64,000 bases of DNA from Sipunculus nudus (lineage: Eukaryota; Annelida; Sipuncula; Golfingiida; Sipunculidae), in assembly GCA_026874595.1 (NCBI GenBank), contig CM049320.1, positions 12,177,964 to 12,241,963 of the forward strand, in the 5' to 3' direction. The position numbers and the translations under genes are program-made. Shown here piece after piece: positions 5,436 to 57,600 of the stretch. Each line of letters opens with the position of its first letter. The stretch's first letter is position 1. The notes below the pieces were generated by a model that saw only the letters and a list, made by a program, of their open reading frames with translations, made no database searches and was not told the DNA's origin.

Positions 5436-5732
5436 TAACCAGGCACAAATCGTAACCGCTGGACCTAGAACCTTGTAACTTGGGATTCTGAGAGGTCCAT
5501 AAAAAATCTCCTTGGAAACCAGAAATTAGGTCTCTGTTACCCATATCCTTCGAGCTATATGGCCCCAAAGTACCCCCCAGAAAAGTCAAAAATTTCATAC
5601 AAAAACTTCAATATCTCATTAACTACTTGACTGATGGTCATGATTTTTGGCATACATATTGATCATGAGATGTTACATCACTTCCTGCAGACTGGTGGCG
5701 CCACCTGTTTTTTTTGATTTTTTACGAATTTT

Positions 5733-8362
5733 TTAGCTCAGCTGACTATAAGTCATCTGAGCTATAGTCGTGGTCCATTGTCCGTCGTCCGTCCGTCTGT
5801 CCGTCCGTCCGTCCGTCCGTCCGTAGATGTGGCACGTTTGAAACCGTAAGACCTAGGAATCCAAAATTCGGCATAATGTTAGATGTCCCCAAGATCTCCT
5901 ACCAAGCCGAAAACTGGGTCTTTGCAACTTCTTTTCTTTGAGAAATTAGGGAAAAACCTCAATTTTTTATTAAAAACCTATTTTCACACTTCAGGACTGC
6001 CTGATATCAAAACCACTCATCTGTTTTTCCTCATATTTACCATAAATATTCCTCTATATAGTTCCTATGTACATGCCAGAAATTATGTCTGTATTATTTA
6101 ATTTAAAAAAGTTATGGGCCCAAACATTATGCATTTTGTAAAAAATCAGGAAAGATATTTGATCACTTAACACAAAAAATGTTAAAGCTATCGACCTTTT
6201 TTCCAGTAATATAACTTTAATTAATCAAAATTAAATTGTATACCCAAAATTAGATGAAAATCTTTTAAATTTTCTAAAATATTAATAAAAATAAAAAATT
6301 GGTACCTTAAATTTTGCCCAACTTTGACCATGGCACGTTTTTTTCCTGTAAGTACTGTGGATTTAATTTTCACAGCATGTTTTTGTTAGCATTTCAACTG
6401 TTAACACCAAAAATTTGAAACCAGTTGATCAAAAACTGTAGATTTTAATAAGTTTTCAAGTACCATGTGACATATTGTTTACATCAAGCTAGTGTTATGC
6501 AGTTTGCAAGAGCTCAGCTCCCCAGCATCAGCTCTTAGTTCCTTAAATTCGGCATACAGTTAGATGTCTCCAAAATCCCCTACCATGCCAAGAATTTGGT
6601 CACTAGGACTTAATACCTTCAAGATATTAATGAAAAACTTCATTTTTCCATTAAAAACCCATTGTTACACTTCAAGACTGCCTTATATCAAAACCACTGA
6701 TCTGACTTTAATCATAAATAATATACATATTTTTCATTCTCTATGCACATGCCAGAATGATGTCAGTATTGCGTAATTGTTTTAAGTTATGGGCCCAAAC
6801 ATAATGCACTTTTTAAAAAATCAAGAAATATATTTACTCCCTTAACAAGGGCATTGCTGAAGCTAGAGATTTTTTTGTCAGGGATGTAACATTATTTAAT
6901 CAAGATTCAATTGAATACCCAAAATTAGTTCTGAATTTTTCAAATTTTATAAGTTATTAGTATAAATATAAAATTAGTACCTTAAATTTTGCCCAACTCT
7001 GACCATGGCACGTTTGTGTCCTGTGAGCACTGTTGATATAATTTTCGTATCATGCACACATAAGGATTTCAGCTTTTTAGTTTAGAAAGCTGAAAGAAAT
7101 TTGCCAAAAATTGTAGCTTTTATTAATGTTTTTTATGAGACCCTGTCAGACTTTGGCTCTCTCCAGCCCCTCTTGAGTCACCTGTATGTTGACCTTGTTG
7201 ACCTTTCATCAAATTATGCATGCTTGAGGCGAGGCATACAGGAATCCAGGCAGCTTATGGCCAGCCACAGTTGATCCAGGTGTCCAACCCAACTCATCTA
7301 GTAGTTTTAACCAATAACATAACAATAAACAATAAATTAATAAATTTTTATTGGTTTTTAATAACAAATTAAAGAAAAATAGAAAAGGAATTTGTTAGTT
7401 TATAATAACAGGAAATTAACTAGCAGTTACTGATGATATAAGAATCTTGTATCGATGGGTAGAATGTCACATATTCCAAATAACACCATGCAGTCACCTA
7501 TGGCATTTTTCAGTTCAATTTTAATGATAAAGAAGTAAATCATATTATTCATTACTAATCACTAGGGATCATATGAAGGAAATTAATGATAGACAAAGAT
7601 GCAGTTGATAATATTAATCTAGATTCCTACTGTGTCTAGTGTGTACATTGATGTGAAATTAGTCCAAAATGAATTTTTTACAGTTATTTTTTAATATAAA
7701 TAAAAGCCATAAAACCAGGTACTTATGATCATTATTTAAATGTGTGAATTTTGTATATTCTGGATTCTCAACATCATTGGTTGGTGAAACTGAATAAATA
7801 CCAGACATGGTGCAAATACTTTGTAATTGTATATAAATACGAATATGATTATGTACTCCATTATAAAATTTCTTGCATAAAGAATAGGAATTCAGGTAAA
7901 AATGAAAGTATATGAATACTCGTGCAAATACTTTCAAAATGTATTCATGAATGCATTCATGAATATATTCTTTAATATTATTTTAATAATCATATCAGTT
8001 ATATTTCATTTAAAAAAATCATATGATTCTCTTATTATTTTTTATAAAAATTATATTTGGGACAATATTTGTAATTTTTGTTAATAAATAGTTAAACTCT
8101 TATATTATATGTTCTGCTTATAAGTTATATGGCCAAGTCAAAATCTGTGTGACAATAGTACTCCATTTGTTAATAAAATAAATGAAATCAATCCTCTTCC
8201 CTGTCTCCAAAGGTACTATCGAAATCATACATAAGCTAAACAACAACAACTCATAATACAGCTTATATTTATTACCACACAAAACCAGCATGTGCCTCAT
8301 TTCTAAATAATATTTTTTTATCATATATAACAGCTGAGCGTCGTGACCCATAGGTCCCTTGT
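5733..8362 (+). mobile_element. Helentron-like element B1 nested in A1
   Basis: Begins T-run/AGCTCAGCTGACTATAAG with the hairpin partner TCATCTGAGC, then TCGTGGTCCATTGTCCGTCG and a (TCCG)n tract. Ends CAGCTGAGCGTCGTGACCC, ATAGGTC, CCTTG|TTT. Two related internal modules (about 5840-6420 and 6545-7080) each carry GGCACGTTT and CCTTAAATTTTGCCCAACT. The insertion splits a module of A1: 6 Ts on the left plus 3 on the right, against 7 Ts at the uninterrupted site near 47444. It is about the same length as 47796-50423 and nearly identical to it along its whole length. Frames inside it are chance frames. Confidence 0.8.
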
Positions 8363-10034
8363 TTCTCTATTTTTGAGACCTTTAAAAATGTGAACATCTG
8401 TTAACAAGGCACAATTCATAAAGACTGGACTTAGAATCTTAATTCTTGACACACTGAGAGGTCCATGAAAAATCTCCTTGGAAACCAGAAATTAGGTCTC
8501 TGTTACCCATATCCTTTGAGCTATGGGGCCCCAAAGTACCCCCCAGAATAATAAAAAATTTCATACAAAAACTTCAATATCTCAATAACTACATCACTGA
8601 TGGTCTTCATTTTTTGCATACATATTGATCATGAGATGTTCGATCAGTTCCTGCAGACTGGTGGCGCCACCTGTACTGTTTGATTTTTTACGATTTTTTT
8701 CCTCTATTTTTAAGACCTTTGAGGATGCTGTCATCTGTTAGCGTGGCACAAATCGTAACGACTGGACCTAGAATCTTCATTTTCGACACACTGAGAGACC
8801 TATGAAAAGTCTCCATGGAAACTAGAAATTAGGTCTCTGTTACCCATATCCTTCGAGCTATGGGGCCCAAAATTACCCCCCAGAATAGTCAAAAATTTCA
8901 TACAAAAACTTCAATATCTCATTAACTACATCACTGATGGTCATGATTTTCGACATACATATTGATCATGAGATGTTTCATCAGTTTGTGCAGACTGGTG
9001 GCGCCACCTGTATTTTTCAATGTTCACGAATTGTTTTCTCCATTTTTGAGACCTTTAAGGATGTAGTGATCTGTCAACAGGGTACAAATCGTAACAACTG
9101 GACCTAGAATCTTCGTTCTTGACACACAGGGAGACCCATGATAAGTCTCCATGGAAACCTGAAATTTGGTCTCTGTTACCCATATCCTTTGAGCTATGGC
9201 ACTCCAAAGTACAGCTCAGAATAATGGAAAATTTGATCAGTATCTGAACAACTAATGCAGAGATAACCATAATTGTTTGCATGGATATTGATCATGGAGT
9301 GTTTCATAAGTTTCTGCAGACTGGTGGCACCACCTGTATTTGTTCGTTTTTTTTTTACAAAATTTTTCTGTATTTTTGAGACCTTTAAAGATATGAACAT
9401 CTGTTAACAGGGCACAAATCATAAAAACTGGACCAAGAATCTTCATTCTTGACACACAGGGAGACCCATGAAAAGTCTCCATGGAAACTTGAAATTAGGT
9501 CTCTGTTACCCATATTCTTTAAGCTGTATGGGTCCAAAATACCCCCCCCCCCCCCCCGAATAATGGAAAATTTGATACAAAAACTGCAGTATTTCAATAA
9601 CTACAACACTGATGGTCATGATTTTCGGCATACATATTGATCATGAGCTGTTCCATCAGTTTCTGCAGACTGGGTGTGCCACCTCTATTTTTTTTTCAAA
9701 TTTTTACGAATTTTTTTCTTTTTTTTTGAGACCTTTAAAGATGTGGTTATCTGTCAACAGGGTACAAATCGCAACAACTGGACCTAGAATCTTCATTCTT
9801 GTCATGCAAGGAGGCCCATGAAAGGTGCCTGTGGAAACTTGAAATTAGGTCTCTGTTACCCATATCCTTCAAGCTATAGGACTCCGAAGTATCCCTCAGA
9901 ATAATGGACAATTTGATACAAAAACTGAAGTATCTGAACAACTAATGCAGAGATCACCATGATTTTTTGCATGGATATTGACCATTAAGTGTTTTTATTA
10001 GTTTCTGCAGACTGGTGGAGCCACCTGTATTTTT
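8363..10034 (+). repeat. Tandem array of five about 330-bp modules (A1)
   Basis: Each unit runs: CTCTATTTTTGAGACCTTTA, a CATCTGTTAACAGGGCACAA-type phrase, ACTGGACCTAGAATCTTC, a GGAAACCTGAAATTAGG-type phrase, TCTCTGTTACCCATATCC, a purine-rich then C-rich tract, CTCATTAACTACATCACTG-like text, TTGATCATGAGATGTT, then CTGCAGACTGGTGGCGCCAC and CTG. Palindromes are intact at 8660 and 8997 and degenerate at 9326 (GGTGGCACCACC) and 10014 (GGTGGAGCCACC). A C homopolymer sits at about 9541-9557. The units diverge moderately from each other, so the array is older than the B insertions. Confidence 0.85.
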
Positions 10035-11205
10035 GTATCCGCCAAAACGAAGTTTTGCGGATACTATGTTTTTGACCGAGTTCCTCCGCCGCGGCGGCGT
10101 TCGTTTCCAGAGAGCTCCTCGGAGTCTAATGGACCGATTTTTCCCAAACTTACACCTATTATCGGGTCACATGTGAACTGGTGCCTAACCAATTTGCATT
10201 GACCTCTGACCTTTCCTCTCTATCCAGTGTCCATTTGTGGGTCTGTTTCCACTCATAAACCCTCATATCTCGGGAACCGTTTGATCGATCAGGAAATAAA
10301 ATTGATACAAATGTAGCCCTTGGATTGCTTTATAACATACTCAAAAAATGGTGGCGCCACCTGTAACCATGTTTGCACAGTGTCCATCTGTTCATATGCC
10401 TTGGGTTAAAATCACTCATATCTCTGCAGTGAATTGACTAATTCACCTGAAATTCGTCATGTGTATACATCCAGGATAGCTTTCTTGATTTTATGACAGG
10501 TGGCGCCACCTACGTTCACGTTCACGCTGATGACATCCAAGCTTATATCTCGGGAACCGTTTGACCGATCAGGAAATAAAATTTATACAAATGTAGCCCT
10601 TTGATAGCTCTGTAACATACACAAAAAATGGTGGCGCCACCTGTAACAATGTTTGCACAGCGTCTGTCTGTTAGTCTGCCGTGGCCTAAAATTACTCATT
10701 TCTCTGTAGTGGTTCGACATAACTGCCTAAAATTTTGCAGGTTTATACATCGTGGACAGCTTTCTTGATTTTATGACAGGTGGCGCCACCTACATCCTAG
10801 TTAACGCTGGACACATCCAAGCTCATATCTCAGGAACCATTTGACCGATTGGGCCAAAATTGTGCATGTGTTTAGATCTCACATAGGTCTTTATCATACA
10901 CAAAACTAGAGGGGTTACCTGCAAAGATTTTTGCACAGTGTTTGTCTGTTTGTCTGCCATGGGCAAAAATCGCTCATATACATGTAGTGGTTTGACTTTT
11001 CTGCCTAAAATTTTGCAGGTGTATACAACTTGGACAGCTTTCTGGATTTGTGGTAGGTGGCACAACCTACATACACATTTAGGCTGCAGACATCCATGCT
11101 AATATGCAACGTACCTCACTCTATTTCCCCTTGCCACTCAATCCATGCCTCACTATCCGATTTTGGCAGATACATGTAGTCACTTGTCGGTTACCCGTAT
11201 TCTAG
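10035..11205 (+). mobile_element. CTAG-ended Helitron-like element C1 nested in A1
   Basis: Opens with GTATCCGCCAAAAC, whose complement GTTTTGCGGATAC follows after GAA (13-bp stem, one bulged C). The 3' end has the degenerate inverted copy GGCAGATAC (GGCGGATAC in the second copy) followed by CCCGTATTCTAG|TTT. The sequence on either side rejoins as TATTTTT / TTTT-AAA-TTTAC-ATTTTTCTCTA, the normal A-module linker, so the insertion is precise, lies in a T-run and shows no obvious target duplication. Inside are tandem modules with CATATCTCGGGAACCGTTTG and palindromes at 10350, 10499, 10630 and 10779. There is no protein-coding capacity. Confidence 0.7.
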
Positions 11206-12690
11206 TTTTAAAAGTTTACACATTTTTCTCTATTTTTGAGATATATAAATACAGACTAAATCTTGGCCTGTTGGTTAATCTGTTTGATGCTTCAGTTGAA
11301 TGGGTATATACTACCATTGTTATGATAAAATTTCCTTTTGTGAATCTCTTCCCAGTCAGCTGAGCGTCATGACCCATGGGTCACTTGTTATTTATTCTAA
11401 TAACTTGAAAAATTTGCAAAATTCAGATCTAATTTTGGGTAAACAATTGAATCTTGATTAAATAAAGTTACATTCCTGAATAAAAGTCTCTAGGTTCAGC
11501 AATTCTCATGTTAGGTGAGTAAATATATTTCCTGATTTTTTTTAAAAATTGCATTATGTTTTGGCCCATAACTTCAAAATAATACCTAATACTGACCTAA
11601 TTTTTGGTATGTTCATAGAAAATGTATGAAAGAATGTGAATACTAAATAAGATCAAAAACAGATCAGTGGTTTTGATATTAGGCAGCCTTGAAGTGTAAC
11701 AATGGCTTTTTTTATGGAAAACTGAGGTTTTTTTTCCTTAATATCTCGAAGGAACGAAGTCCTAATGACTCAATTTTCGGCATGGTAGGAGATTTTGGGG
11801 ACATCTAAAATTATGCCAACAGCCTTGGGAGCATAGTGATGTGCACTGAATGACCTACAGTCATCAAAGTGGACTGCTTGACAATGTAAGGGAATACAAC
11901 AAGAGCCTCCAAAAAAAATTCAATAACTAGCCTAATTTTGCAGCTTTTATTTTCAAATTTCAGATTTTAACAGATTAAATCCTTATGTATACATGCTGTG
12001 AAAATTAAATCCACAGTACTTACAGAAAAAAAACGTGCCGTGGCCAAAGTTAGGCAAAATTTAAGGTACCAATTTTATATTTTTTCCAATATTTAAAATT
12101 TTGAATTTAAATTGAAAAAAATTGAATTTAAAAGAAAATTGAATTTAAAAAATTTTGATCTAATTTTTGGTATACAATTAAATTTTGATTAATTAAAGTT
12201 GTATTACTGGAAAAAAGTCCCTACCTTTAACACTTTTGGTCTTAAGTGACCAAATATCTTCCTGATTTTTTTACAAAGTCCATTATGTTTGGGCCCATAA
12301 CTTTTTTAAATTATATAAGACTGACTTAATATCTGGCATGTACATAGGAACTATATAGAGGAATATTTATGGTAAATATGAAGAAAACCAGATGAGTGGT
12401 TTTGATATTAGGCAGTCCTGAAGTGTGAAAATAGATTTCTAATAAAAAATTGAGGTTTTTCCTTAATATCTTGAAGGAATGAAGTCCTATTGACCCAATT
12501 TTCGGCATGGTAGGAGATTTTGGGGACATCTAACTGTATGCCGAATTTCAGATTCGTAGGTCCAACGGTGTCGAACATGCCAGTCTTACGGATGGACATC
12601 TGGACGGACGGACGGCACGACAGACGAACGGACGACGGACAATGGACCATGACTACAGCTCAGATGACTTATAGTCAGCTGAGCTAAAAA

Positions 12691-13512: not shown

Positions 13513-13690
13513 TTAACTGCTTCTTGGTTATTTATATTTTATACTACTTATATATAGATGGGTTATATCTAGTGAGGAGGTGCATGAAAGATTGTCTAAA
13601 CAAGTAACTGAATGTGCATGAAACTATAATTCCCACATGTTTAAACAGTTTTATGTAGACCTGAATAAATACTGCCAGTCAATACATTTT

Positions 13691-16252: not shown

Positions 16253-17313
16253 CAGGGTTGGGTTCAAATGCAACTCGGCGCATTTAAATGCAAATGCAAA
16301 TGTTATGTTGTTTCCCAAAATGCAAATGCAAATGCAAATGCCTTACCACTCATTGCATTTAAATGCAAATGCAAATGCAAATGCTTTACCAGTCATTGCA
16401 TTTAAATGCAAATGCAAATGCATTCAGATTTTTTCAAATGCAAATGCAAATGCTTTTATGTGCTTTTAAATGCAAATGTCTATATATATACTACAGCATA
16501 TAAAATATACTTTTTTCTCGGTAGAAAATAATAAACAACAACCTTTTTGGATCATTTTTTATTATGAAATAACAACATCAAATTGATTCACTATATTACA
16601 GTCTCTTTCTGTAATTGATTTATGTTATCAAATCAGTGACTCTGTGACAGAGGTATGACCATATGTACATATATAGGTTGCTAGTAAACATGGAACATGG
16701 GTTATTGTTGACAAACAGGAAACAGTGTCACTGAAATCTCATTAAATGTTGTGTATATATAGAGTTCACAAATGTGCATTGCACTTGACAAACATCAGTG
16801 ATTCAAACAAGTTGTCTGCCAGGCTGTTACGCTCTGGCCGGAAGATTTTTCCAGCGGTGGAGAAAATCCTTTCTACTGGTGCTGATGATGCTGGGGTACA
16901 TAGATACCTTTGACTCTGTATGGCTAGGCCAGGCATGCGGTGGGCATTTTCCTTCCAATAAGTCAGAGGGTTGCAGCTCATGTCAACTGTCTTCTCTGAC
17001 AGATAAAGATCCAGCTCCGTGGTGTCCTTGGGAGTGTCCAGCCTCCAACAAGAATTGTATACAACTACATATTTTTGCTGCATGCAAAATGACAAAATAT
17101 TAAGAATTTGCATTTGACATTTGATCCACATTTCAAATGCAAATGCAAATGCGTAGCATTTTTTCAAATGCAAATGCAAATGAATTACATCAGTCTGACA
17201 TTTAAATGCAAATGCAAATGCAAATGCGGGCTTTTCAAAATTTTTGCATTTAAATGCAAATGCAATTGTGCAACATTTAAAAGCAAATGCATTTGCATTT
17301 GGACCCAACTCTG
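16253..17313 (-). mobile_element. Internally deleted hAT element with AAATGC subterminal arrays
   Basis: The left terminus is CAGGGTTGGGTTCAAATGC; the right terminus in reverse complement is CAGAGTTGGGTCCAAATGC. The element is flanked by a perfect 8-bp duplication, CTGTCTAA (16245-16252 and 17314-17321). Both subterminal regions (16262-16475 and 17110-17312) are dense arrays of ATGCAAATGC, interrupted by short spacers. These would be transposase-binding repeats. Between them lies the terminal exon of a hAT transposase on the minus strand. At 1,061 bp the element is much shorter than an autonomous hAT, so most of the transposase has been lost. Confidence 0.92.
16766..17077 (-). pseudogene. hAT transposase C-terminal (dimerisation) exon, remnant
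   Basis: The transposase catalyses cut-and-paste movement of hAT elements and dimerises through its C-terminal domain. This exon encodes that domain: LDLYLSEK, then NPLTYWKEN, then YLCTPASSAPVERIFSTAG, then the final helix LFESLMFVKCN before a TGA stop. NPLxYWK, PASSAPVER and FSTAG are hallmarks of the hAT dimerisation family. I place the 5' edge at a splice acceptor (minus-strand TTTTGCATGCAG) next to the start of conserved sequence. Upstream, the frame runs on through the subterminal ATGCAAATGC array and gives a meaningless FAFKC/NANA repeat. The zinc-finger and catalytic parts are absent, so it cannot be an active transposase on its own. The exon has no internal stop, so the loss of the rest may be fairly recent. 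Confidence 0.9.
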
Positions 17314-17321
17314 CTGTCTAA

Positions 17322-36317: not shown

Positions 36318-36385
36318 ATTGATCATGACAAGTTTTAGCATTTGCTGAAGACTGGTGGCTCCACCCGTAATTTTGTGGTTTTTCC
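36318..36385 (+). repeat. Fragment of an A-type module
   Basis: TTGATCATGACAAGTTTTAG, then CTGAAGACTGGTGGCTCCAC and CCGTAATTTT correspond to the last 70 bp of the A module. The palindrome is degenerate (GGTGGCTCCACC). Confidence 0.65.
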
Positions 36386-38881: not shown

Positions 38882-39935
38882 GTTTTCAGCCGGACGCCGC
38901 CGCAGCGTAGGTGTCCTGAGAACTCCTCCGTAACCGCTGGGCGGAATTTTATGAAACCCAAGATTATGTTCGGGTCACATGTGAATTGCTGTGCCCCAAT
39001 TTTGTTTTGACCTCTGATCTTTCCTCTGTGCTCTGCGTCCATCTGTGCGTCTGTTTTGACACATTAACCCACATATCTCGGGAACCGTTTGACAGATCCG
39101 GAAAAAAATTTTGCACAAATGTAACCCTTGGATAGCTTTATAACATATATCAAAAATGGTGGCGCCACCTGCAACCATTTTTGCACGGTGTCCATCTGTT
39201 TATCTGCCTTGGGATAAAAATCACTCGTATCTCTGCATTGGTTTGACTTATCCACCTGAAATTTGCATGTGTATACATCCTGGACAGCTTTCTTGATTTT
39301 ATGATAGGTGGCGCCACCTACATTCAGGTTTACGCTGCAGACATCCAAGCTCATATGTCGGGAACTGTTTGACCTTTTGGGCCAAAATTTTGCATGGGTA
39401 TAGATCTCACATAGCTCTTTATCATACACAAAACTGGTGGCGCCACCTGCAACCATTTTTGCACAGCGTCCGTCTGTTTGTCTGATGTGGGATAAAATCA
39501 CAATTTTGCAGGTTTATACATCTTGGATAGCTTTCTTGATTTTATTACAGGTGGCTCCACTTACCTTCACATTTACCCTGCAGACATCCAAGCTCATATC
39601 TCTGGAACCGTTTGGCCGATTGGGCCAAAATTTTGCAAGTGTATAGATCTCACATTGCTCTTTATTATATGGGTCCATCTGTTTGTTTGCCGTGGGATAA
39701 AATTACTCATATCTTGACAGTGGTTTGACTTTTTTGCATTTGTATACAATTTGATAGCTTTCTGGATTTTGTGGTAGGTGGCACAACCTACATACACATT
39801 TCGGCTGCAGACATCCATGCTAATATGCAACACACCTCACTCTATTTCCCCTTGTTACTCAATCCATGCCTCACTTCACCCGTCCCACTCTGATTTCGGC
39901 GGATACACGTAGCTTGTCGACTACCCGTATTCTAG
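38882..39935 (+). mobile_element. CTAG-ended Helitron-like element C2
   Basis: Ends GGCGGATACACGTAGC, then CTACCCGTATTCTAG|TTT, as in C1. Internal modules share CATATCTCGGGAACCGTTTG, CCAAAATTTTGCA and intact palindromes at 39159, 39307 and 39436, with a degenerate one at 39549. The 5' hairpin GTATCCGCC...GGCGGATAC start is missing; the copy begins around CAGCCGGACGCCGCCG, so it is 5'-truncated. Confidence 0.7.
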
Positions 39936-43573: not shown

Positions 43574-43821
43574 CCAAAAGTACCCCAAAAGAGGATTGTT
43601 TTTTCAGTTTTGTTTGTCTGTCACTGAGGTGAATATCAAAATGTTTAGCTTCACATATCCTAAATATTCCAATATTCTGTGTTTTATTATTCTTTTTTTC
43701 TTTTTTTTTCAGGTAAGTGCCCGAAGTTGATGTGTCATCCCTCTTTTAGGCTGTGGCCATTCTACATTATTTGTGTCTGGAAGTGAAAATCCACACAAGA
43801 GAGTGATCAGTATGGACTCTA

Positions 43822-44035
43822 GAAGAGTATGATGTGGCAGACAGGATAAAGTGATGTGGCAGACAGGAAAATGTGTTGTGGCACACAGGAGTGTGTGATG
43901 TGGCACACAGAGAGTGTGTGATGTGGCACACAGAAAAGTGTTATGTGGCACACAGTAGAATGTGATTTGGCACACAGGAATGTGTGATGTGGCACACAGG
44001 AGTATGTGATGTGGTACACAGAAAAGTGTGACTGT
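43822..44035. repeat. Minisatellite of GTGTGATGTGGCACACAG units
   Basis: About ten units of 20-24 bp around GATGTGGCACACAGGA. The first two carry GGCAGACAGGA instead. GTGTG and CACAC within a unit are complementary, so each could form a small hairpin. Minus-strand frames (VPHHTLLCATSH) are translations of the repeat. Confidence 0.85.
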
Positions 44036-46010: not shown

Positions 46011-46011
46011 T

Positions 46012-46397
46012 CCGGTTTTCATGACAGTTTTGCCGCCGCATATAAATCCTGTTGGCGCTAAAACTCAAAAAATAGTTCACGGATCTTTACCAAACTTGGT
46101 ATATGTATAGATATGGGTGAGAGGACAATGCCTTTTAAAATGAGGTCATGACCTTTACTAGGAGAGTGTCTTTGACCTTGAATAGGTCAAATCACAAAAA
46201 TTCTTTAAATATCTCAAGTGATCTTGCATGGATTGATCCAAAAATTATTTGATTGAAAGGTTGTCATGTTCTAGAAACTGGTGGCGCCACCTATTATTCT
46301 TTCCTTGTTTTCGTGCCTTTTAAAACCCCCTAAATTGCCACTTGACATCTTATCAAGGGCTAGGCCAAGTTTGAATATGGATGACCTTGATGCGTTT
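46012..46397 (+). mobile_element. E-type repeat, left part (host of A2)
   Basis: Starts near CCGGTTTTCATGACAG and CCGCCGCATATAAATCC, followed by GGTCATGACCTTTACTAG, TTAAATATCTCAAGTGATC and an intact palindrome at 46280. It is interrupted at GATGACCTTGATGCG|TTTTT by A2 and resumes at 54516. Confidence 0.6.
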
Positions 46398-47795
46398 TTA
46401 GCTCAGCTGACTTTCAGTCATGCTGAGCTATAGCGATCACTCTTTGTCCGTCGTCCGTCTGTCCGTTTACTAGGCACAAATCGTAACCGCTGGACCTAGA
46501 ATCTTGTAACTTGACATTCTGAGAGGTCGATAAAAAATCTCCATGGAAACCAGAAATTAGGTCTCTGTTTCCCATATCCTTCAAGCTATGGGGCCCCAAA
46601 GTACCCCCCAGAATAGTCAAAAATTTCATACAAAAACTTCAATATCTCATTAACTACATCACTGATGGTCATGATTTTTTGCATACATATTGATCATGAG
46701 ATGTTTCATCAGTTCCTGCAGACTGGTGGCGCCACCTGTATTTTTCGATTTTTTACGAATAGTTTTCTCTATTTTTGAGACCTTAAAAAATGTGAACATC
46801 TGTTAACAGGGCACAAATCGTAACGACTGGACCTAGAATCTTCATTCTTGACACACAGGGAGACCTATGAAAAGTCTTCATGGAAACCTGAAATTAGGTC
46901 TCTGTTACCCATATCCTATGAGCTATGGGGCCCCAAAGTACCCCCAAGAATAGTCAAAAATTTCATACAAAAACTTAAATATCTCATTAACTACATCACT
47001 GATGGTCATGATTTTTGGCATACATATTGATCATGAGATGTTTCAACAGTTTCTGCAGACTGGTGGCGCCACCTATATTTTTGATTTTTTACGAATAGTT
47101 TTCTCTATTTTTTAGACCTTTAAGAATGTGAACATCTGTTAACAGGGCACAAATCGTATAGACTGGACCTAGAATCTTCTTTTTTTACACAGTGAGAGAC
47201 CTATAAAAAGTCTCCATGGAAACCAGAAATCAGGTCTCTGTTACCCATATCCTTTGAGCTATGGGGCCCCAAAGTACCCCCCCCCCCCCCCCAGAATAGC
47301 AAAAAAATTTCATACAAAAACTTCAATATCTCATTAACTACATCACTGCCGGTCATGATTTTTGGCATACATTTTAATTATGAGATGGTCCATCAGTTCC
47401 TGCAGACTGGTGGCGCCACCTGTATTTTTCGATTTTTTACGAATTTTTTTCTCTATTTTTGAGACCTTAAAAAATGTGAACATCTGTTAACAGGGCACAA
47501 ATCGTAACGACTGGACCTAGAATCTTCATTCTTGACACACAGGGAGACCCATGAAAAGTCTCCATGGAAACCTGAAATTAGGTCTCTGTTACCCATATCC
47601 TATGAGCTATGGGGCCCCAAAGTACCCCCCAGAATAGTCAAAAATTTCATACAAAACTTCAATATCTCATTAACTACATCACTGATGGTCATGATTTTTG
47701 GCATACATATTGATCATGAGTTGTTCCAACAGTTTCTGCAGACTGGTGGCACCACCTATATTTTTTGATTTTTTACGAATAGTTTTCTCTATTTT

Positions 47796-50423
47796 TAGCT
47801 CAGCTGACTATAAGTCATCTGAGCTATAGTCGTGGTCCATTGTCCGTCGTCCGTCCGTCTGTCCGTCCGTCCGTCCGTCAGTCCGTCCGTCCGTAGATGT
47901 GGCACGTTTTGAAACCGTAAGACCTAGGAATCCAAAATTCGGCATAATGTTAGATGTCCCCAAGATCTCCTACCAAGCCGAAAACTGGGTCTTTGCAACT
48001 TCGTTTCTTTGAGAAATTAAGGAAAAACCTCAATTTTTTATTAAAAACCTATTTTCACACTTCAGGACTGCCTAATATCAAAACCACTCATCTGTTTTTC
48101 CTCATATTTACCATAAATATTCCTCTTTATAGTTCCTATGTACATGCCAGAAATTATGTCTGTATTATTTAATTTAAAAAAGTTATGGGCCCAAACATAA
48201 TGCATTTTGTAAAAAATCAGAAAAGATATTTGATCACTTAACACAAAAAATGTTAAAGCTATGGACCTTTTTTCCGGTAATATAACTTTAATTAATCAAA
48301 ATTAAATTGTATACCCAAAATTAGATGAAAATCTTTTAAATTTTTTAAAATATTCACAAAAATAAAAAATTGGTACCTTAAATTTTGCCCAACTTTGACC
48401 ATGGCACGTTTTTTTCCTGTAAGTACTGTGGATTTAATTTTCACAGCATGTTTTTGTTAGCATTTAAACTGTTAACACCAAAAATTTGAAACCAGTTGAT
48501 CAAAAACTGTAGATTTTAATCAAGTTTTCAAGCACCATGTAACATATTGTTTACATCAAGCTAGTGTTATGCAGTTTGCAAGAGCTCAGCTCCCCAGCTT
48601 CAGCTCTAAGTTCCTTAAATTCGGCATACAGTTAGATGTCTCCAAAATCCCCTACCATGCCAAGAATTTGGTCACTAGGACTTAATACCTTTGAGATATT
48701 AATGAAAAACTTCATTTTTCCATTAAAAACCCATTGTTACACTTCAAGACTGCCTAATATCAAAACCACTGATCTGACTTTAATCATAAATAATATACAT
48801 ATTTTTCATTCTCTATGCACATGCCAGAATGATGTCAGTATTGCGTAATTGTTTTAAGTTATGGGCCCAAACATAATGCACTTTGTAAAAAATCAAGAAA
48901 TATATTTACTCCCTTAACAAGGGCATTGCTGAAGCTAGAGATTTTTTTGTCAGGGATGTAACATTATTTAATCAAGATTCAATTGAATACCCAAAATCAG
49001 TTCTGAATTTTTCAAATTTTATAAGTTATTAGTATAAATATAAAATTAGTACCTTAAATTTTGCCCAACTGTGACCATGGCATGTTTGTTTCCCGTGAGC
49101 ACTGTTGATATAATTTTCATATCATGCACACGTAAGCATTTCAGCTTTTTAGTTTAGAAAGCTGAAAGAAATTGGCCAAAAATTGTAGCTTTTATTAATG
49201 TTTATTATGAGACCCTGTCAGACTTTGGCTCTCTCCAGCCCCTCTTGAGTCACCTGTATGTTGACCTTGTTGACCTTTCATCAAATTATGCACGCTTGAG
49301 GCGAGGCATACATGGAATCCAGGCAGCTTATGGCCAGCCACAGTTGATCTAGGTGTCCAACCCAACTCATCTAGTAGTTTTAACCAACAACATAACAATA
49401 AACAAATTAATAAATTTTTATTGTTTTTTAATAACAAATTAAAGAAAAATAGAATAGGAATTTGTTAGTTTATAATAACAGGAAATTAACTTGCAGTTAC
49501 TGATGATATAAGAATCTTGTATCGATGGGTAGAATGTCACATATTCCAAATAACACCATGCAGTCACCTATGGCATTTTTCAGTTCAATTTTAATGATAA
49601 AGAAGTAAATCATATTATTCATTACTAATCATTAGGGATCATATGAAGGAAATTAATGATAGACAAAGATGCAGTTGATAATATTAATCTAGATTCCTAC
49701 TGTGTCTAGTGTGTACATTGATGTGAAATTAGTCCAAAATGAATTTTTTACAGTTATTTTTTAATATAAATAAAAGCCATAAAACCAGGTACTTATGATC
49801 ATTATTTAAATGTGTGAATTTTGTATATTCTGGATTCTCAACATCATTGTTTGGTGAAAACTGAATAAATACCAGACATGGTGCAAATACTTTGTAATTG
49901 TATTTAAATACGAATATGATTATGTACTCCATTATAAAATTTCTTGCATAAAGAATGGGAATTCAGGTAAAAATGAAAGTATATGAATACTCGTGCCAAT
50001 ACTTTCAAAATGTATTCATGAATGCATTCATGAATATATTCTTTAATATTATTTTAATAATCATATCAGTTATATTTCATTTAAAAAAATCATATGATTC
50101 TCCTATTATTTTTAATAAAAATTATATTTGGGACAATATTTGTAATTTTTTTTAATAAATAGTTAAACTCTTATATTATATGTTCTGCTTATAAGTTATA
50201 TGGCCAAGTCAAAATCTGTGTTACAATAGTACTCCATTTGTTAATAAAATAAATGAAATCAATCCTCTTCCCTGTCTCCAAAGGTACTATCAAAATCTTA
50301 CATAAGCTAAACAACTCATAATACAGCTTATAATACCACACAAAACCAGCATGTGCCTCATTTCTAAATAATATTTTTTTATCATATATAACAGCTGAGC
50401 GTCGTGACCCATAGGTCCCTTGT
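47796..50423 (+). mobile_element. Helentron-like element B2 nested in A2
   Basis: Near-identical to 5733-8362 along its whole length (2,628 and 2,630 bp by my boundaries). The ends are T-run/AGCTCAGCTGACTATAAG with a (TCCG)n tract, and CAGCTGAGCGTCGTGACCC, ATAGGTC, CCTTG|TTT. The target was CTCTATTTTTTAGACC: 5 Ts on the left plus 3 on the right, against 6 Ts in uninterrupted modules (47093-47110 and 50753-50770). Near-identity to B1 at a different target implies recent mobility of this family. Confidence 0.85.
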
Positions 50424-51435
50424 TTAGACCTTTAAGAATGTGAACATCTGTTAACAGGGCACAAATCCTATAGACTGGACCTAGAATCTTCATTCTTGAC
50501 ACACATGGAGACCTATGAAAAGTCTCCATGGAAACCTGAAATTAGGTCTCTGTTACCCATATCCTATGAGCTATGGGGCCCCAAAGTACCCCCAATAATA
50601 GTCAAAAATTTCATACAAAAACTTAAATATCTCATTAACTACATCACTGATGGTCATGATTTTTGGCATACATATTGATCATGAGATGTTTCAACAGTTT
50701 CTGCAGACTGGTGGCGCCACCTATATTTTTCGATTTTTTACGAATAGTTTTCTCTATTTTTTAGACCTTTAAGAATGTGAACATCTGTTAACAGGGCACA
50801 AATCGTATAGACTGGACCTAGAATCTTCATTTTTTACACAGTGAGAGACCTATAAAAAGTATCCATGGAAACCAGAAATTAGGTCTCTGTTACCCATATC
50901 CTTTGAGCTATGGGGCCCCAAAGTAACCCCCCCCCCCCAGAATAGCAAAAAAATTTCATACAAAAACTTCAATATCTCATTAACTACATCACTGCCGGTC
51001 ATGATTTTTGGCATACATTTTAATTATGAGATGATCCATCAGTTCCTGCAGACTGGTGGCGCCACCTGTATTTTTCGATTTTTTACGAATTTTTTTCTCT
51101 ATTTTTGAGACCTTAAAAAATGTGAACATCTGTTAACAGGGCACAAATCGTAACGACTGGACCTAGAATCTTCATTCTTGACACACAGGGAGACCCATGA
51201 AAAGTCTCCATGGAAACCTGAAATTAGGTCTCTGTTACCCAAATCCTATGAGCTGTGGGGCTCTTAATTACCCCCCCCCCCCGAATAATGGAAATTTTCA
51301 TACAAAAACTTCAGTATCTCATTAACTACAACACTGATGGTCATGATTTTTTACATACATATTGATCAAGAGGTGTTCCATCAGTTCCTGCAGACTGGTG
51401 GCACCACCTGTATTTTTTCAAATTTTTACAATTTT

Positions 51436-53340
51436 TAGCTCAGCTGACTATAAGTCATCTGAGCTATAGTCGTGGTCCATTGTCCGTCGTCCGTCCGTCT
51501 GTCCGTCGTGCCGTCCGTCCGTCCGTCCGTCCGTAGATGTGGCACGTTTTGAAACCGTAAGACCTAGGAATCCAAAATTCAGCATATTGTTAGATGTCCC
51601 CAAGATCTCCTACCAAGCCGAAAACTGGGTCTTTGCGACTTCGTTCCTTTGAAAAATTAAGGAAAAACCTCAATTTTTTATTAAAATCCTATTTTCACAC
51701 TTCAGGACTGCCTAATATCAAAACCACTCATCTGTTTTTCCTCATATTTACCATAAATATTCTTCTATATAGTTCCTATGTACATGCCAGAAATTAAGTC
51801 TGTTAAGTATAAATTCTTTAAGTTATGGGCCCAAACATAATGGACTTTGTAAAAAATCAGGAAAAATATTTACTTACTTAACATGAAAAATTTTGAAATT
51901 AGAGTCTATTTTCCCAAGTATATAACTATGTTTAATTAAGATTCAATTGTTTACCCAAAATTAGATCTGAATTTTGTAAATTTTTTAAGTAATTAGCATA
52001 AAAATAAAATCAGTACCTTAAATTTTGCCCAACTTTGACCATGGCACGTTTTTTTCCTGTAAGTACCATTGATTTAATTTTCACACCATGTAAACATAAA
52101 TATTTAATTTGTTTAAATCTGAAATTTGGAAGTAAAAGCTTGAAAATTAAGCTAGTTATTTATTTTTTTTCTTGAGGCTCTATTGTAGTCATTTGCTTTG
52201 ATTACAGATTACAGATGCAGGGTCCCACTCCAGGTCACTGGAAGTCAGCTATGCCAGGGTTTCTGATTTGTTACAGTCACTGGGGGAGATCCCCTGCTGT
52301 GACAGGTGTACAGTCATTCTCATATCACCACCCCAATCACCCCCCCCCCCCCCCCCGCAAACCCAACCCACCAAGTGTTATGCAGTATTGTTATTGTTTT
52401 CACTGTATCTCCATAATTGTAATGCTGTTTCCACTCTGATATGCAAAAACTTTCCTTGAAAAAGTAATTCAAGGTGTAATCCAGAAGATGCAATGTTGTG
52501 TAATGTAGCCTTTTTAAGAAATCATTTTTCTTTTAAATGATTTTACCAGTCATAATGGATACCATCAGTATGCTTAAATTATGATAAAATATGAAGCACA
52601 TTATGGATAAATAAAGACACAATTAAAAACTGTGAAATTTAAATCAAGTATTTTTTTTAGATATTTATTGTTTTGCAGATTTAAAAGATATATTTTTGTG
52701 GTAAAAAATAAATAAACATTTGTATGCATGATGTGGTGTTATCTGACAAGATTGAGATTTATGATGATGCAATTGAGAATTATGAATCAACTTTTATATT
52801 CAGATATATATGTTATATTGAAAATGTATAGAAATATAAACTTAAATTAAAAAAAAAATTGATGTGATAAAAAAATGAGGATTTATTACAAACATTTGTT
52901 CATTATTATCCTGCATCAGCAGAATTTGAGATCAGGCTTTGTTTGCCATTTTTTATGTTGTTAATTAGTTATATTTCAACTGTATACATTTCATAAAAAA
53001 ACATATTTAATAATATATATTATACAAAAAAAAGATTTGATTGAACAAATGTGTAAACTACTGAAATGTCAACAGTTAATCGAAAAGCCAACTAATGATC
53101 ATGGTAATTGTACAGATCATTTGTTCACAAACTGCTCACAGTTTCAACATTAGGAAACACATGGTCAGGTCACAAAATATTATTTGCAACAATTTCTTGC
53201 TCATCAATACAAAACAATCATATAACCAACCATGGCCTTTATTACCTCTTCCTCTTACACTTTATCTCCATTTTATATTATTTTAGATTTTTACCTTCAA
53301 GGTTAACATCAGCTGAGCACAGTGACCCATAGGTCCCATG
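51436..53340 (+). mobile_element. Helentron-like element B3 nested in A2
   Basis: 5' end as in B1/B2 up to about 52130 (one module). The rest (52140-53340) is unrelated to B1/B2 except for the 3' end, CATCAGCTGAGC, ACAGTGACCCATAGGTCC, CATG, which matches the short element at 13691-13966. It contains a C homopolymer (52339-52355). It is a chimera of a B-type 5' half and a different 3' half. Confidence 0.7.
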
Positions 53341-54515
53341 TTTTTTCTCTATTTTGGAGACCTTTAAGGATGTAGTTATCTGTCAAAATGGTACAAATCG
53401 TAATGACTGGACCTAGAATCTCCATTTTTGACACATACGGAAACCCATGAAAAGTCTCCATGGAAACCTGAAATTAGGTCTCTGTTACCCATATCCTTTG
53501 AGCTATGGCACTCCAAAGTAAAGCTTTAGAATAATGGAAAATTTGATACAAAACAAGTATCTGAACAACTAATGCAGAGATCACCATAATTGTATGCATG
53601 GATATTGATCATGGAGTGTTTCATCAGTTTCTGCAGACTGGTGGCACCACCTGTATTTGTTCAGCTTTTTTTATGAATTTTTTTCTCTATTTTTGAGTCC
53701 TTTAAAGATATGAACATCTGTAAACAGGGCCCAAATCATAACAACTTGTACTAGAATCTTCATTCTTGACAAACAGGGAGATCCATGAAAAGCCTCCATG
53801 GAAACCTGAAATTAGGTCTCTGTTACCCATATCCTTTAAGCTGTATGGCTTCAAAATACCCCCCATAATAATGAAAAATTGTATACAAAAACTGCAGTAT
53901 CTCAATAACTACAACACTGATGGTCATGATTTTTGGCATACATATTGATCATGAGGTGTTCCATCAGTTTCTGCAGACTGGGTGAGCCACCTCTATTTTT
54001 TTTCAAATTTTTACGAATTTTTTTCTCTATTTTTGAGACCTTTAAAGAATAGGTTATCTGTCAACAGGGTACAAATCGTAACAACTGGACCTAGAATCTT
54101 CATTCTTGTCATGCAAGGAGGCCCATGAAAAGTTTCTGTGGAAACCTGAAATTAGGTCTCTGTTTCCCATATCCTTCAAGCTATAGGACTCAAGCTATAA
54201 GTATCCCTCAGAATAATGGACAATTTGATACAAATGCTGAAGTATCTGAACAACTTATCCTGAGACCACCATGCTTCTTTGCATGGATATTGACCATTAA
54301 GTGTTTTTATTAGTTTCTGCAGACTGGTGGAGCCACCTGTATTTTTTTTTTTTTCTCTATTTTTTATATATATTAATACAGACACAATCTCAGCCTGTTG
54401 GTTAATCTGTTTGATGCTTCAGTTGAATGGGTATATACTACCATTCAGATGATAAAATTTCCTTTTTGCGAATCTTTTCCCATTCAGCTGAGCGTCATGA
54501 CCCATGGGTCACTTG

Positions 54516-54830
54516 TTCAAGGTCACAGAGGAGATAAAGCTGAAATGATGTTAACTTTAATATCTCACTAAGGGATGCTTGGATTTGTCTAAAAATCAAA
54601 TTGACATAAGATCTTTGATAGCATTGTTTTCTGAAGAAGACAGGTGGCGCCACCTTATGTTGTTTTCTTGCTAAAATAATGTTTTCTTTCAAATCATGTG
54701 TATAGACATGGGTTACGGAATGAGATATATTTCAGTTTGGATCATGACCTTTCCTATGAGGTTACAGTTGTTTCGTACCATAATGCATAATAACTCAAGG
54801 AAACTTGCAAATATGAAGTTTATCAATGAC
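54516..54830 (+). mobile_element. E-type repeat, right part
   Basis: Resumes CAAGGTCACAGAGGAG, then AATATCTCACTAAGGGATGC, an intact palindrome at 54643 and ATCATGACCTTTCCTATGAG. It continues the host interrupted at 46397. Confidence 0.6.
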
Positions 54831-56744
54831 TAAAGACCCTGTGTATATTACCCTTTTATCATCCACTATAAGGCAGTTGATTCAAGATCAAATTCTAATG
54901 CAAACCAAGCCGAATGCAGAATTTTATTATGTCTTTTAATGTTCTGTATTAAGGTTTAACGAGGCAAAATGAATATGATGAATAATAAGTATCAGGATGA
55001 TCGGCAATTAAAAACACTATGTCCAGTGCCCACACTGCTGTGTTGAATGAATGGGCTGGTCAGGCTGGACGCTAGGTGGCACTAGTTGTTTGCCTGCAGT
55101 TTTTCAAGCAGGTAAATGACACACACGGGAGTATCAGTTTTAGGGATATCCCGTATCAGGACTACAGTCATAGCATTGGTTAAGCTTCAACAAGAACAAT
55201 TTTAAGGAGGCTCAAGTGAGGACCACAGTGATGGTTTAGCTGTAAGGTTCATGGTGGACCACAAGTTTGATGTCTGGAGAATGTATAAAACTAAATACAA
55301 CCAGTCTGGAATTCTCAAATTGAATATTATCAGAAAAAAATAGTGGATCAGATCAAATGTTAATTGATCATGTGACTTGAGGTGACAACATTTACTTTGG
55401 CAGCCACAGTTTGTCCTTGCTCTTGAACCTCCTTCCAGAAGTACAAGTGCTGCTTCAATCTGAAGGATGTACTCTTGCATTATTCCAATCCATTGCTGAG
55501 GTACCTACCATGCCTCCTTATGTATTACTAACCTGTCAGTCATGTATTTCTTACCTCTCATCATGCTGGGGTAAGGTAGATGAAATGAAAATTTATCAGA
55601 AATCATTCAGAGACTGTTTATTGATAATAATACAGTTGAGAGCTTGGTTGACATGGGTCATGACGAGCTTTATACCTTGGAGAATATTTTTGCTGTTCCA
55701 TTTAGTTATTGATTTAGGCAGTGTTATAGTTTTTGTAACTGTTTAGGTAAAAATATATATCCATGTACCTTGCCCAGAGGCAATAATTCATGATTAAATT
55801 ATGCAAATTAATGGATATTTTCATTTTGTACTTTAAAATATATGAGAGAGTTTCACCAGAAATTCACTCCGTTTGGCATCTTATGGGACAGACGGGCAGG
55901 TTTACATATGCAATAAAACCAGAGTGAATATCGCAAGAAAATAGAATTTCCTTTTCAGGCAGATACCAGACACAAATAACTCATTTCTATTGAGTCTTCA
56001 GTGCTTATGAGGTGATAGTTCATGCTTCCAGTTTCCTGTGAATAATGTGTCTAGATTATTCTGGTTTTGGCTATAGATGGTTAACACTACATTGAATGAT
56101 AAATTGTCACCTTAGGTATATATAGCTAACCTCCAAGCAGTGCTGTAGGTTATATGTTTATTTTACAGTTAAGTGAGTTTCAGTGTTGCTCTGCTGCTTG
56201 AATGAGCAAGATAAAGCCAGCTGAACAGGTTACAGTAATAAAATATCAAAGACCGAAATAACCAGGTGCCTCAGGTGATTTGGCTGAACATGTTTAAAGG
56301 TCAGGAGATTGATCCATAGGCGGCTCTGTCTATCGATTGAAAATAAAGATCAGCATGATGATAGGTAATTCATATTTCAGAGGTATTACAGTTTTCTGTT
56401 TTTCAGGTTCTTTTGACCCTGATTTTAATCAGGACATTTCTCAGGGCTTTCAGTAGCGCTGGGGTTAGCGTCTATGACACTCAAAATCTCTTACCGACAC
56501 TCGGTTCTAAGGGTCCAAGCGTCACATGGGACATGCTAATTTCTGCCTTTTGGACCTTATAGCAGCCAATGACTGTTACCAGCTGCCCCAAACGAACCTG
56601 TCAGTCGTGTGAACACTGATAACTGAGTCTTATATTTGGCTGTAAGCATACATTCACATAATGACAATTTATAATCATATAATGATATGATGATAACATA
56701 AACTACAAACAATCCAAATTTTACATGTCCATAAATAATATTGA
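54831..56744. other. Non-coding DNA
   Basis: A CTCF-like core, TAGGTGGCAC, lies at 55072. The 111-codon frame at 55411-55746 has no recognised domain. No other feature. Confidence 0.4.
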
Positions 56745-57600
56745 CAGAACAAAGCCTATATAAAATGGGGTCATGACCTTTTCTATGAGAGTGACCTTGA
56801 CCTTGGAAAGCTCCATTTTGGGGGAAAATCACACAAATTCTTAAATATCTCTAGAAATATTGCATCAAATGATCCAAAAATCAATTTTACCAAAGATCTT
56901 GAATAGTGTTGCCATGTACTGCAAACTGGTGGTGCCACCATGCTGTTTTATACCCCCCGTCATTGCTACAGGACAAAACAAATCTTTGAGCATTAAGATA
57001 ACTTAACGGGATAACTTAATTAAAATTGGAGTCATGACCTTTCCTATGAGAGTAACAATGACCTTTAATATTGCCATATATGGTGAAAATCATACAAGAT
57101 CATAAATTTTTCAATAAGGGAGGCTTGGATTGGTCCAAAAATCAACCGACCAAAGAAAATGGCTCATATCTGAGGAGTTGTTCATGTGTTGGTCTGAAAT
57201 TTGGCATGTAAATCAACCTTGGAGAGTTTTCTGGTCAACTGGACTGGTGGCGCCACCTACCCTACTGTTTTCATAGTATAAATCAATGCCCTTTTTTCAG
57301 GAATGAAATTGTGCTTGTCCATAGATCTTGGATACCTCCATCTCAAATTCAAGACTGGTGGCGCCATCTACAATAGTGTTCGTGTTGCATTCATAAGTTC
57401 ATTTGCTCAAGTGCTCATATCTGAGGAATTGTTCAATGTGTTGGTCTGCAATTTGGCATGTACATCCTGATTGGAGAGTTTTCAGATCAGGCAACCAGAC
57501 ATGAATGCCACCATCCTTACCATTTCAATAGCATAAATTCATCCCCTTTTCTCAAGAGTGATTCACCATATTGGCCCCCATAATTGGTGAAAAAATATGG
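56745..57600 (+). repeat. E-type repeat array
   Basis: Related units share GGTCATGACCTTTTCTATGA-type text, AAATCACACAAATTC, ATCCAAAAATCAA and a palindrome: degenerate at 56930 (GGTGGTGCCACC), intact at 57246 and degenerate at 57357 (GGTGGCGCCATC). A sub-repeat, CTCATATCTGAGGARTTGTT, is present at 57165 and 57414. Confidence 0.7.

What the first reader, a model, noticed from the sequence alone, without database searches (positions are those of the whole stretch)
5694..57257. Perfect palindrome GGTGGCGCCACC repeated 18 times across unrelated module families
Exact copies start at 5694, 8660, 8997, 10350, 10499, 10630, 10779, 39159, 39307, 39436, 46280, 46725, 47062, 47409, 50710, 51055, 54643 and 57246, with about ten one- or two-base variants. 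A given 12-mer is expected far less than once in 64 kb. The flanking module sequences (A, C, E) are otherwise largely unalike, yet each places the palindrome at a similar distance after an ATATCTC phrase. This implies either shared deep ancestry or selection for the palindrome.
Basis: partly seen in the sequence, partly recalled or inferred. Interest (0 to 1): 0.8.

Follow-up and report, generated by a model that had tools for sequence, protein, structure and literature searches.

The report
Two-box module in jumping satellite repeats
A perfect 12-letter palindrome and a second short word about 83 letters upstream are kept together in many otherwise different repeat families carried by jumping DNA in this animal genome, which suggests a protein-binding site that helped those elements spread, although individual copies decay much like the rest of the repeat.

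Summary
Observation confirmed: 18 exact GGTGGCGCCACC and 12 copies with one or two mismatches in the window; 111,729 exact copies in the genome, about 4.5 expected from base composition. They lie in modules, often tandem, inside non-autonomous rolling-circle elements: a HINE-like Helentron type (A, 337-bp units), a Helitron/proto-Helentron-like type (C, 280-bp units), and less resolved families.

Across families the palindrome, a following T and an upstream ATATCTC box keep a spacing near 83 bp. The 61 bp between them is at background identity between groups without gaps, but with gaps 17 of 51 between-group pairs still align at Z 3 or more, so common ancestry is likely.

In A the palindrome varies like its near flanks; in F, E1 and C1 its non-CpG letters vary about half as much, not significant by column (F and E1, p = 0.10), and its CpG decays fast. 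Copy number explains the count; conservation shows between source families.

Best reading: an ancient two-box module kept in source elements, probably a protein-binding site; the protein is unknown. New variant of a known kind.

The parts
5334..11389 (+). HINE-like (Helentron-type) element carrying an A array: 5' T-run + AGCTCAGCTGAC with inverted repeat GTCATCTGAGC, GTCC/GTCT microsatellite, 337-bp units, 3' GTCAGCTGAGC + GACCCATGGGTC + CTTGTT; interrupted by two nested insertions
   Evidence: sequence; end motifs; arrays
5694..5705 (.). exact palindrome (A), box at 5611 (83 bp)
5735..8363 (+). nested HINE-like insertion (2,629 bp) without palindromes, in a T-run of the A array; uninterrupted versions of the junction exist elsewhere
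8362..10034 (+). A array; exact palindromes 8660 and 8997, one-mismatch variants 9323 and 10014
10035..11205 (+). C element nested in the A-bearing element: 5' GTATCCGCCAAAACGAAGTTTTGCGGATAC (first base not fixed), 280-bp units, 3' GGCAGATACA + imperfect hairpin + CCGTATTCTAG
10265..11105 (+). C array: alternating C1 (box to palindrome 85 bp) and C2 (81 bp) modules; exact palindromes 10350, 10499, 10630, 10779, degenerate 11056
36354..36365 (.). isolated one-mismatch palindrome GGTGGCTCCACC without a clear box (best 3 mismatches)
38890..39935 (+). second C element (5' end diverged, start approximate); exact palindromes 39158, 39307, 39436, degenerate 39550 and 39777; 3' CTACCCGTATTCTAG
46209..46291 (+). 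E1 module, palindrome 46280, shorter spacing (71 bp)
46400..54517 (+). second HINE-like A-bearing element with nested insertions at 47797-50424 and 51437-53342 (no palindromes in them)
46473..47796 (+). A array; exact palindromes 46725, 47062, 47409, variant 47745
50426..51436 (+). A array continued; exact palindromes 50710, 51055, variant 51397
53341..54344 (+). A/K units with decayed palindromes (53640, 54326) and boxes (GTATCTG) that keep 83-84 bp spacing
54560..54654 (+). E2 module, palindrome 54643, box 54560 (83 bp)
56845..57368 (+). three further sites: 56928 (one mismatch, box 83 bp upstream), 57246 (exact, one-mismatch box 80 bp upstream), 57357 (one mismatch, box with 2 mismatches)

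Best explanation
The palindrome is one of two conserved boxes of an ancient module, ATATCTC ... about 83 bp ... GGTGGCGCCACCT. The module builds short arrays inside several kinds of non-autonomous rolling-circle elements (HINE-like Helentrons and Helitron/proto-Helentron-like elements) of an animal genome, probably a bivalve mollusc (inferred from the element types, not tested). Shown: the modules, the element ends around A and C arrays, the near-constant spacing, and strong divergence between the boxes. Inferred: the two boxes and their spacing (about eight helical turns) are kept in source elements because a DNA-binding protein, most likely of the host, recognises them and helps the element be copied or expressed. 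Once inserted, copies drift nearly neutrally, and the CpG in the palindrome decays by the pattern expected of methylated cytosine. The high count is the copy number of these families.
For: 111,729 exact copies against about 4.5 expected. The pattern ATCTC-N{62,91}-palindrome has 74,336 matches, so at most 66.5% of palindromes carry that exact box (a site with two boxes would count twice); control 0. Of 40 loci picked only for the palindrome, 27 have a box with at least 6 of 7 letters at 70-95 bp, against 9.6% of 2,000 random window positions; 24 of the 27 lie at 80-85 bp, 15 at 83. Of 40 loci picked only for the box, 27 have the palindrome with at most 2 mismatches, at 82-86 bp. Between groups the inter-box 61 bp is near background identity without gaps. 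The next letter is T in 26 of 27 oriented loci and in all 11 representatives. The majority sequence of the flank-anchored A, C1, F and E1 samples keeps the CpG, although in F, E1 and C1 it decays 2 to 8 times faster than the other palindrome letters. Rolling-circle ends for A and C.
Against: Within A the palindrome is no better kept than its near flanks, and 7 of 40 A copies carry GGGTGTGCCACC, GGGTGCGCCACC or GGATGCGTCACC, so a module can multiply with a broken palindrome; C1 has a repeated GATGGCGCCACC variant. C1b keeps it intact in only 2 of 11. Nine of 40 box-picked loci belong to an array family with no palindrome. With gaps 17 of 51 between-group pairs align at Z 3 or more, and F or G against the others are 0.324 identical without gaps against 0.272, so part of the sharing is plain ancestry. 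All 11 representatives were chosen because they hold the palindrome; A, C1a, C1b, F and G also turned up in the box-picked sample. No binding, expression or mobility data. Eight Helitron Rep-bearing places of 143 were read (five over 10 kb) and hold no palindrome within one mismatch and none of the A or C end motifs.
Confidence: 0.57

Rival explanations
1. Pure shared ancestry and copy number: the modules descend from one repeat and the palindrome is a stretch that happened not to change in the sources; no function.
For: Family copy numbers give the count; near-neutral decay inside A; 17 of 51 between-group pairs align with gaps at Z 3 or more; multiplied copies with broken palindromes.
Against: Between groups the inter-box sequence is near background without gaps while 13 bp, the box and the spacing are kept. 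The palindrome contains a CpG that decays fast in copies yet stands in the majority sequence of the anchored A, C1, F and E1 samples.
Confidence: 0.3
2. The palindrome is a recombination or replication hot spot at which modules of different type are joined, so it persists as a seam and not as a binding site.
For: C1a and J share the right arm (Z 7.4) but hardly the left 22 bp (Z 1.2), while C2 and J share the inter-box arm (Z 7.3) but hardly the right arm (Z 2.2). PMC5139131 (passages) reports junctions of one clam satellite mapping to a palindrome.
Against: A near-constant 83-bp distance to the box is not expected of a seam; few pairs show mosaicism; PMC5139131 (passages) found no statistical support for junctions at the conserved motifs of BIV160/Cg170.
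Confidence: 0.08
3. Exapted host regulatory or architectural sites (for example CTCF-like): many single copies are under selection for the host.
For: The reverse strand reads AGGTGGCGC, which fits the core of the CTCF motif (recalled). Non-CpG palindrome letters in F and E1 vary about half as much as flanks by cell count (p = 0.0008).
Against: With a recalled CTCF matrix 9 family contexts score 6.4-13.6 bits, near the bare palindrome in random flanks (median 5.9, 5-95% range -1.3 to 15.3) and far below the maximum of 31.4; 6 of 9 lie below the 99th percentile (8.7) of other 50-bp windows. Column-level p = 0.10; the CpG is not clearly protected (0.14 in the palindrome, 0.195 in the flank of F).
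Confidence: 0.05

Closest known systems
Cg_HINE elements and Cg170/HindIII satellite of the Pacific oyster (PMC7492417; passages and sections 6 and 8)
   Same: Non-autonomous Helentrons with subTIR, inverted repeat, GTCC-type microsatellite, satellite-like tandem repeats and a 3' palindrome; monomers of dissimilar clusters share two conserved segments.
   Different: Units here are 337 and 280 (131+149) bp; the CL4-like oyster monomer is about 168 bp. The oyster segments are in a figure I could not see, so whether they are the same two boxes is unknown.
BIV160 / Cg170 / CvA satellite family of bivalves (PMC5139131; passages and section 14)
   Same: Divergent monomers that share two well-conserved motifs; related repeats sit inside pearl-type elements.
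   Different: The BIV160 primer sequences printed there have no close match in my loci (best 7 of 25 and 5 of 21 mismatches).
DTC84 (pearl-related) of Donax trunculus (PMC5139131, passage)
DINE-1 / HINE / proto-Helentron (PMC4067079, 12 of 19 passages)
   Same: Terminal build of A (subTIR, inverted repeat, T-rich insertion) and of C (subTIR, hairpin, CTAG).
   Different: No internal two-box module in the passages I saw.

Membership tests
HINE (non-autonomous Helentron): A-bearing element | subterminal inverted repeats of at least 11 bp | tested here: met
   5' AGCTCAGCTGAC against 3' GTCAGCTGAGC at 11355 (11 bp); only 10 bp (TCAGCTGAGC, 54484) in the second element
HINE (non-autonomous Helentron): A-bearing element | inverted repeat and microsatellite on the left, tandem repeats in the centre, 3' palindrome | tested here: met
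   GTCATCTGAGC, GTCC/GTCT repeats, 337-bp units, GACCCATGGGTC
HINE (non-autonomous Helentron): A-bearing element | insertion in a T-run without target duplication (empty site) | tested here: inconclusive
   Uninterrupted junctions found for two nested copies with the same kind of ends (21 and 2 hits), 0 hits for a third; the A-bearing element itself was not tested
HINE (non-autonomous Helentron): A-bearing element | autonomous partner with the same ends | tested here: inconclusive
   Helitron_like_N matched in 143 places; 8 places were read (five over 10 kb) and showed no A or C end motif; a small sample, and element ends may lie outside the pieces
Helitron / proto-Helentron: C element | 3' hairpin followed by CTRR | tested here: met
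   GTAGTCGCTTGTCGACTAC then CCGTATTCTAG in L141 and L145; diverged hairpins with the same CCGTATTCTAG in the 2 window copies
Helitron / proto-Helentron: C element | 5' TC (or TT) and insertion between A and T | tested here: inconclusive
   5' ends share TTGTATCCGCC in 3 copies, so the first base is not fixed; no empty site was sought
BIV160 / Cg170 satellite family | two motifs conserved while the rest diverges | tested here: met
   (same kind of pattern; not shown to be the same motifs)
BIV160 / Cg170 satellite family | sequence match to BIV160 | tested here: not met
   primer sequences from PMC5139131, best 7 of 25 and 5 of 21 mismatches; a weak test
CTCF binding site | match to the full 19-bp motif | tested here: not met
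   recalled matrix; only the core fits
CTCF binding site | protein occupancy | not testable with these tools
   needs ChIP or a binding assay

The most novel reading that the evidence does not exclude
Rolling-circle elements have spread more than a hundred thousand copies of a two-part protein-binding site (ATATCTC box plus GGTGGCGCCACCT at a near-constant 83-bp distance) through a mollusc-like genome, and competition between different element families has kept that site while almost everything around it was replaced: a host chromatin or replication factor that mobile elements must capture to spread.
Probability: 0.2. Interest if true: 0.75.

Novelty: new variant of a known kind. Interest (0 to 1): 0.45.

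Why it matters
Bivalve satellite-like repeats that share two conserved motifs are described, and in the passages I read no function is established for the motifs (PMC5139131, PMC7492417). Here the motif pair is exact enough (13 bp plus a box at near-constant spacing, in families whose intervening sequence is strongly diverged) to be used directly as bait for a binding protein. It could also explain why different rolling-circle families carry look-alike tandem cores.

Tried and rejected
Host-level selection on single copies: not supported in A, weak in F, E1 and C1. CTCF: recalled matrix, not better than the bare palindrome. E2F (TGGCGCCA) and SMAD (GGCGCC) cores were considered from memory only, not scored. 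Structured RNA: no Rfam match at gathering score in the window; one folding call failed on length and was not repeated. A strict need for the dyad: multiplied variants (GGGTGTGCCACC, GATGGCGCCACC) are not symmetric. Viral spread: both IMG/VR contigs with the box-palindrome pattern showed no blastn match to the modules and I take them as chance. Autonomous partners: none recognised in 8 places of 143. Literature: the 12-mer occurs in 1 held paper, on a chitinase (search listing only). Searches on helitron/bivalve/palindrome (20 of 49 listed), helentron/mollusc (16 of 16), BIV160 (11 of 11), CTCF/mollusc/helitron (15 of 89), DTC84 (2 of 2) and Cg170 (10 of 12) showed no title about this palindrome. 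Of papers I saw PMC7492417 (passages, sections 6 and 8), PMC5139131 (passages, section 14), PMC4067079 (passages) and PMC11136912 (passages); the rest as listings. Supplementary files were not open to me.

Rows dropped or not tallied: one search printed 100 A rows cut at 80 letters, of which 40 were fetched and counted; one search printed 100 C rows, of which 20 stretches were fetched, and only modules with enough flank entered (13 C1a, 11 C1b, 16 C2). Of the 100 palindromes printed, 40 stretches were fetched; of the 100 boxes printed, 40 were fetched, thinned by hand. All these lie on the first contig. Searches were tallied in full (100 of 100 each); one search also gives C1 without 36 rows of one subfamily. 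The sorting of the 40 box-picked loci into families (29, 9, 2) and the count of 22 intact A copies were made by reading the outputs. On checking this report against the calls I lowered the best explanation from 0.60 to 0.57 and raised pure ancestry from 0.27 to 0.30, because 17 of 51 between-group pairs align with gaps.
Full report
Observation. GGTGGCGCCACC is present 18 times exactly and 12 more times with one or two mismatches. The shuffle expectation for the 30 sites is 0.34, and the base-composition expectation for exact copies is 0.0002 in the window. The whole genome (G000, 1.43 Gb, 153 contigs) holds 111,729 exact copies; the same word read backwards occurs 14 times (that control word has two CpGs, so it is somewhat too rare to be a fair match). 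With the window's base composition about 4.5 copies are expected in the genome. The window is enriched: 18 copies against about 5 from the genome mean.

Where they lie. A units of about 337 bp stand at 8362-10034, 46473-47796, 50426-51436 and 53341-54344. C units of 280 bp, made of a C1 and a C2 module (palindromes 149 and 131 bp apart), stand at 10265-11105 and again from 39073 to 39788. E-type modules stand alone or in small groups at 46280, 54643 and 56928-57368. A arrays lie between ends typical of HINEs: a T-run, AGCTCAGCTGAC, inverted repeat GTCATCTGAGC and a GTCC-type microsatellite; at the other side GTCAGCTGAGCG, GACCCATGGGTC, CTTGTT. C arrays lie between GTATCCGCCAAAA..TTTTGCGGATAC and TTTNGGCRGATACA followed by a hairpin and CCGTATTCTAG. 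Module-free insertions of 1.9-2.6 kb with HINE ends interrupt the A arrays in runs of T; uninterrupted versions of the junction were found for two of three.

The two boxes. In the window 14 of 18 exact palindromes have exact ATATCTC upstream and the other 4 have it with one mismatch; distances are 83 (10), 85 (3), 81 (2), 80 (2) and 71 (1). Genome-wide the pattern ATCTC-N{62,91}-palindrome has 37,536 + 36,800 matches, control 0; that is at most 66.5% of 111,729, since a site with two boxes would count twice. Of 40 loci fetched only because they hold the palindrome, 27 have at least 6 of 7 box letters within 70-95 bp against 9.6% of 2,000 random window positions; 24 of these 27 lie at 80-85 bp and 15 at 83. 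Of 40 loci fetched only because they hold ATATCTCNNNAAC, I place 29 in module families by eye; 27 of these have the palindrome with at most 2 mismatches at 82-86 bp and 2 have lost it; 9 belong to another array family (spacing about 311-331 bp) without it, and 2 look unrelated.

Between families. Eleven representatives (A, C1a, C1b, C2, E1, E2, F, G, H, J, K), all chosen because they hold the palindrome, were compared. With gaps, 21 of 55 pairs reach Z 3 or more (17 of the 51 pairs between groups), among them A-K 13.1, E1-E2 10.0, C1a-C1b 8.2, C2-J 7.3, C1b-C2 7.1, C1b-J 6.0, E1-K 5.8, C1b-H 5.1 and A-E2 4.3; 26 stay below 2 (100 composition shuffles each, so the values are rough). Without gaps, in register with the palindrome, the 61 bp between the boxes is 0.293 identical between groups against 0.273 (sd 0.014) at other offsets, and 0.570 within groups; without F and G it is 0.275, while F or G against the others is 0.324 against 0.272 (sd 0.020), a small excess. 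C1a and C2 are off register by two bases in that test. So the stretch is at or near background between groups, with some remaining homology. A, C1a, C1b, F and G were also met in the box-picked sample, that is without asking for the palindrome. The letter after the palindrome is T in all 11 representatives and in 26 of 27 oriented loci; A stands three letters before it in 24 of 27.

A: 40 copies anchored outside the palindrome; palindrome 0.063 divergence per column, 0.057 between anchor and palindrome, 0.066 just after, 0.094 left of the anchor; 85 of 242 sliding 12-column windows are less divergent; by reading the rows, 22 of 40 keep the exact palindrome and 7 carry GGGTGTGCCACC (4), GGGTGCGCCACC (2) or GGATGCGTCACC (1). 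F: 100 rows, 61 intact; non-CpG palindrome 0.018 against flank 0.031; CpG 0.14 in the palindrome and 0.195 in the flank. E1: 100 rows, 67 intact; 0.016 against 0.032; palindrome CpG 0.115. C1: 100 rows, 53 intact; non-CpG 0.041 against 0.122 left and 0.071 right; CpG 0.095; without the AACAAAAG subfamily 64 rows, 30 intact, 0.042 against 0.075 and 0.095, CpG 0.141. Smaller sets: C1a 8 of 13 intact, palindrome 0.038 against 0.076-0.109 around it; C1b 2 of 11, 0.076 against 0.061-0.076; C2 8 of 16, 0.104 against 0.047-0.141. Pooled F and E1 cells give Fisher p = 0.0008, but flank columns include subfamily-diagnostic changes, and with columns as units p = 0.10. I read this as near-neutral decay after insertion, with CpG loss of the kind expected from cytosine methylation (inference).

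Interpretation. The count is copy number. The retention of a CpG-containing 12-mer, a following T, a 7-letter box and a near-constant distance, in families whose intervening sequence has largely turned over, points to constraint on source elements, on top of common ancestry. A spacing near 83 bp is about eight turns of B-DNA (general knowledge), which would put the two boxes on one face. I think a sequence-specific binding protein is the likeliest cause; which one is open. The reverse strand holds AGGTGGCGC, the core of the CTCF motif (recalled), but with a recalled matrix the nine family contexts score 6.4-13.6 bits, little above the bare palindrome in random flanks (median 5.9), and 6 of 9 lie below the 99th percentile of other 50-bp windows. 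Eight of 143 places with a Helitron Rep domain were read (nine loci, one inside another; five of 10 kb); none holds the palindrome within one mismatch or the A or C end motifs, so the mobilising partner was not found.

Known work. Oyster Cg_HINE elements have the same build, and monomers of otherwise dissimilar clusters share two conserved segments (PMC7492417; passages and sections 6 and 8). The BIV160/Cg170 family keeps two well-conserved motifs despite divergence, and DTC84 has a conserved palindrome near the repeat junction (PMC5139131; passages and section 14). Ends and insertion habits of Helentrons and Helitrons are from PMC4067079 (passages). I could not see the figures, so I cannot say whether the oyster segments equal the two boxes here. 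BIV160 primer sequences do not match closely. The palindrome as a word was found in one unrelated paper. Hence: new variant of a known kind, with a testable motif pair.

Noticed in passing
G000 C1:307588-326990: A separate array family with about 330-bp spacing and box ATATCTCCAAAAC but no palindrome; same first box, different rest.
   Followed up: partly
L150 (G000 C1:1404000-1411500) and on to about 1419 kb: E1 modules recur every 2.6-2.9 kb at six places between 1405 and 1419 kb, as if a whole element were tandemly amplified; three palindromes lie in L150.
   Followed up: partly
window 25343-27809: Another HINE-like element with the same ends and no palindrome modules, outside any A array.
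   Followed up: no
window 40609-40915: Nine near-perfect copies of a 34-bp unit (98% matches), a young-looking tandem repeat unlike the modules.
   Followed up: no
window 43821-44036: 22-bp repeat TGATGTGGCACACAGGAGAATG, about nine copies.
   Followed up: no
window 16766-17317 (minus): Stop-to-stop frame of 183 aa ending like a hAT transposase dimerisation region (recalled resemblance, not searched).
   Followed up: no
modules C1a, C2 and J: J resembles C2 left of the palindrome and C1a right of it, a possible exchange at the palindrome.
   Followed up: partly
palindrome positions 6-7 in F, E1, C1: The CpG decays, mostly to TG or CA, 2 to 8 times faster than the other palindrome letters, which suggests germline methylation of these elements.
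   Followed up: partly
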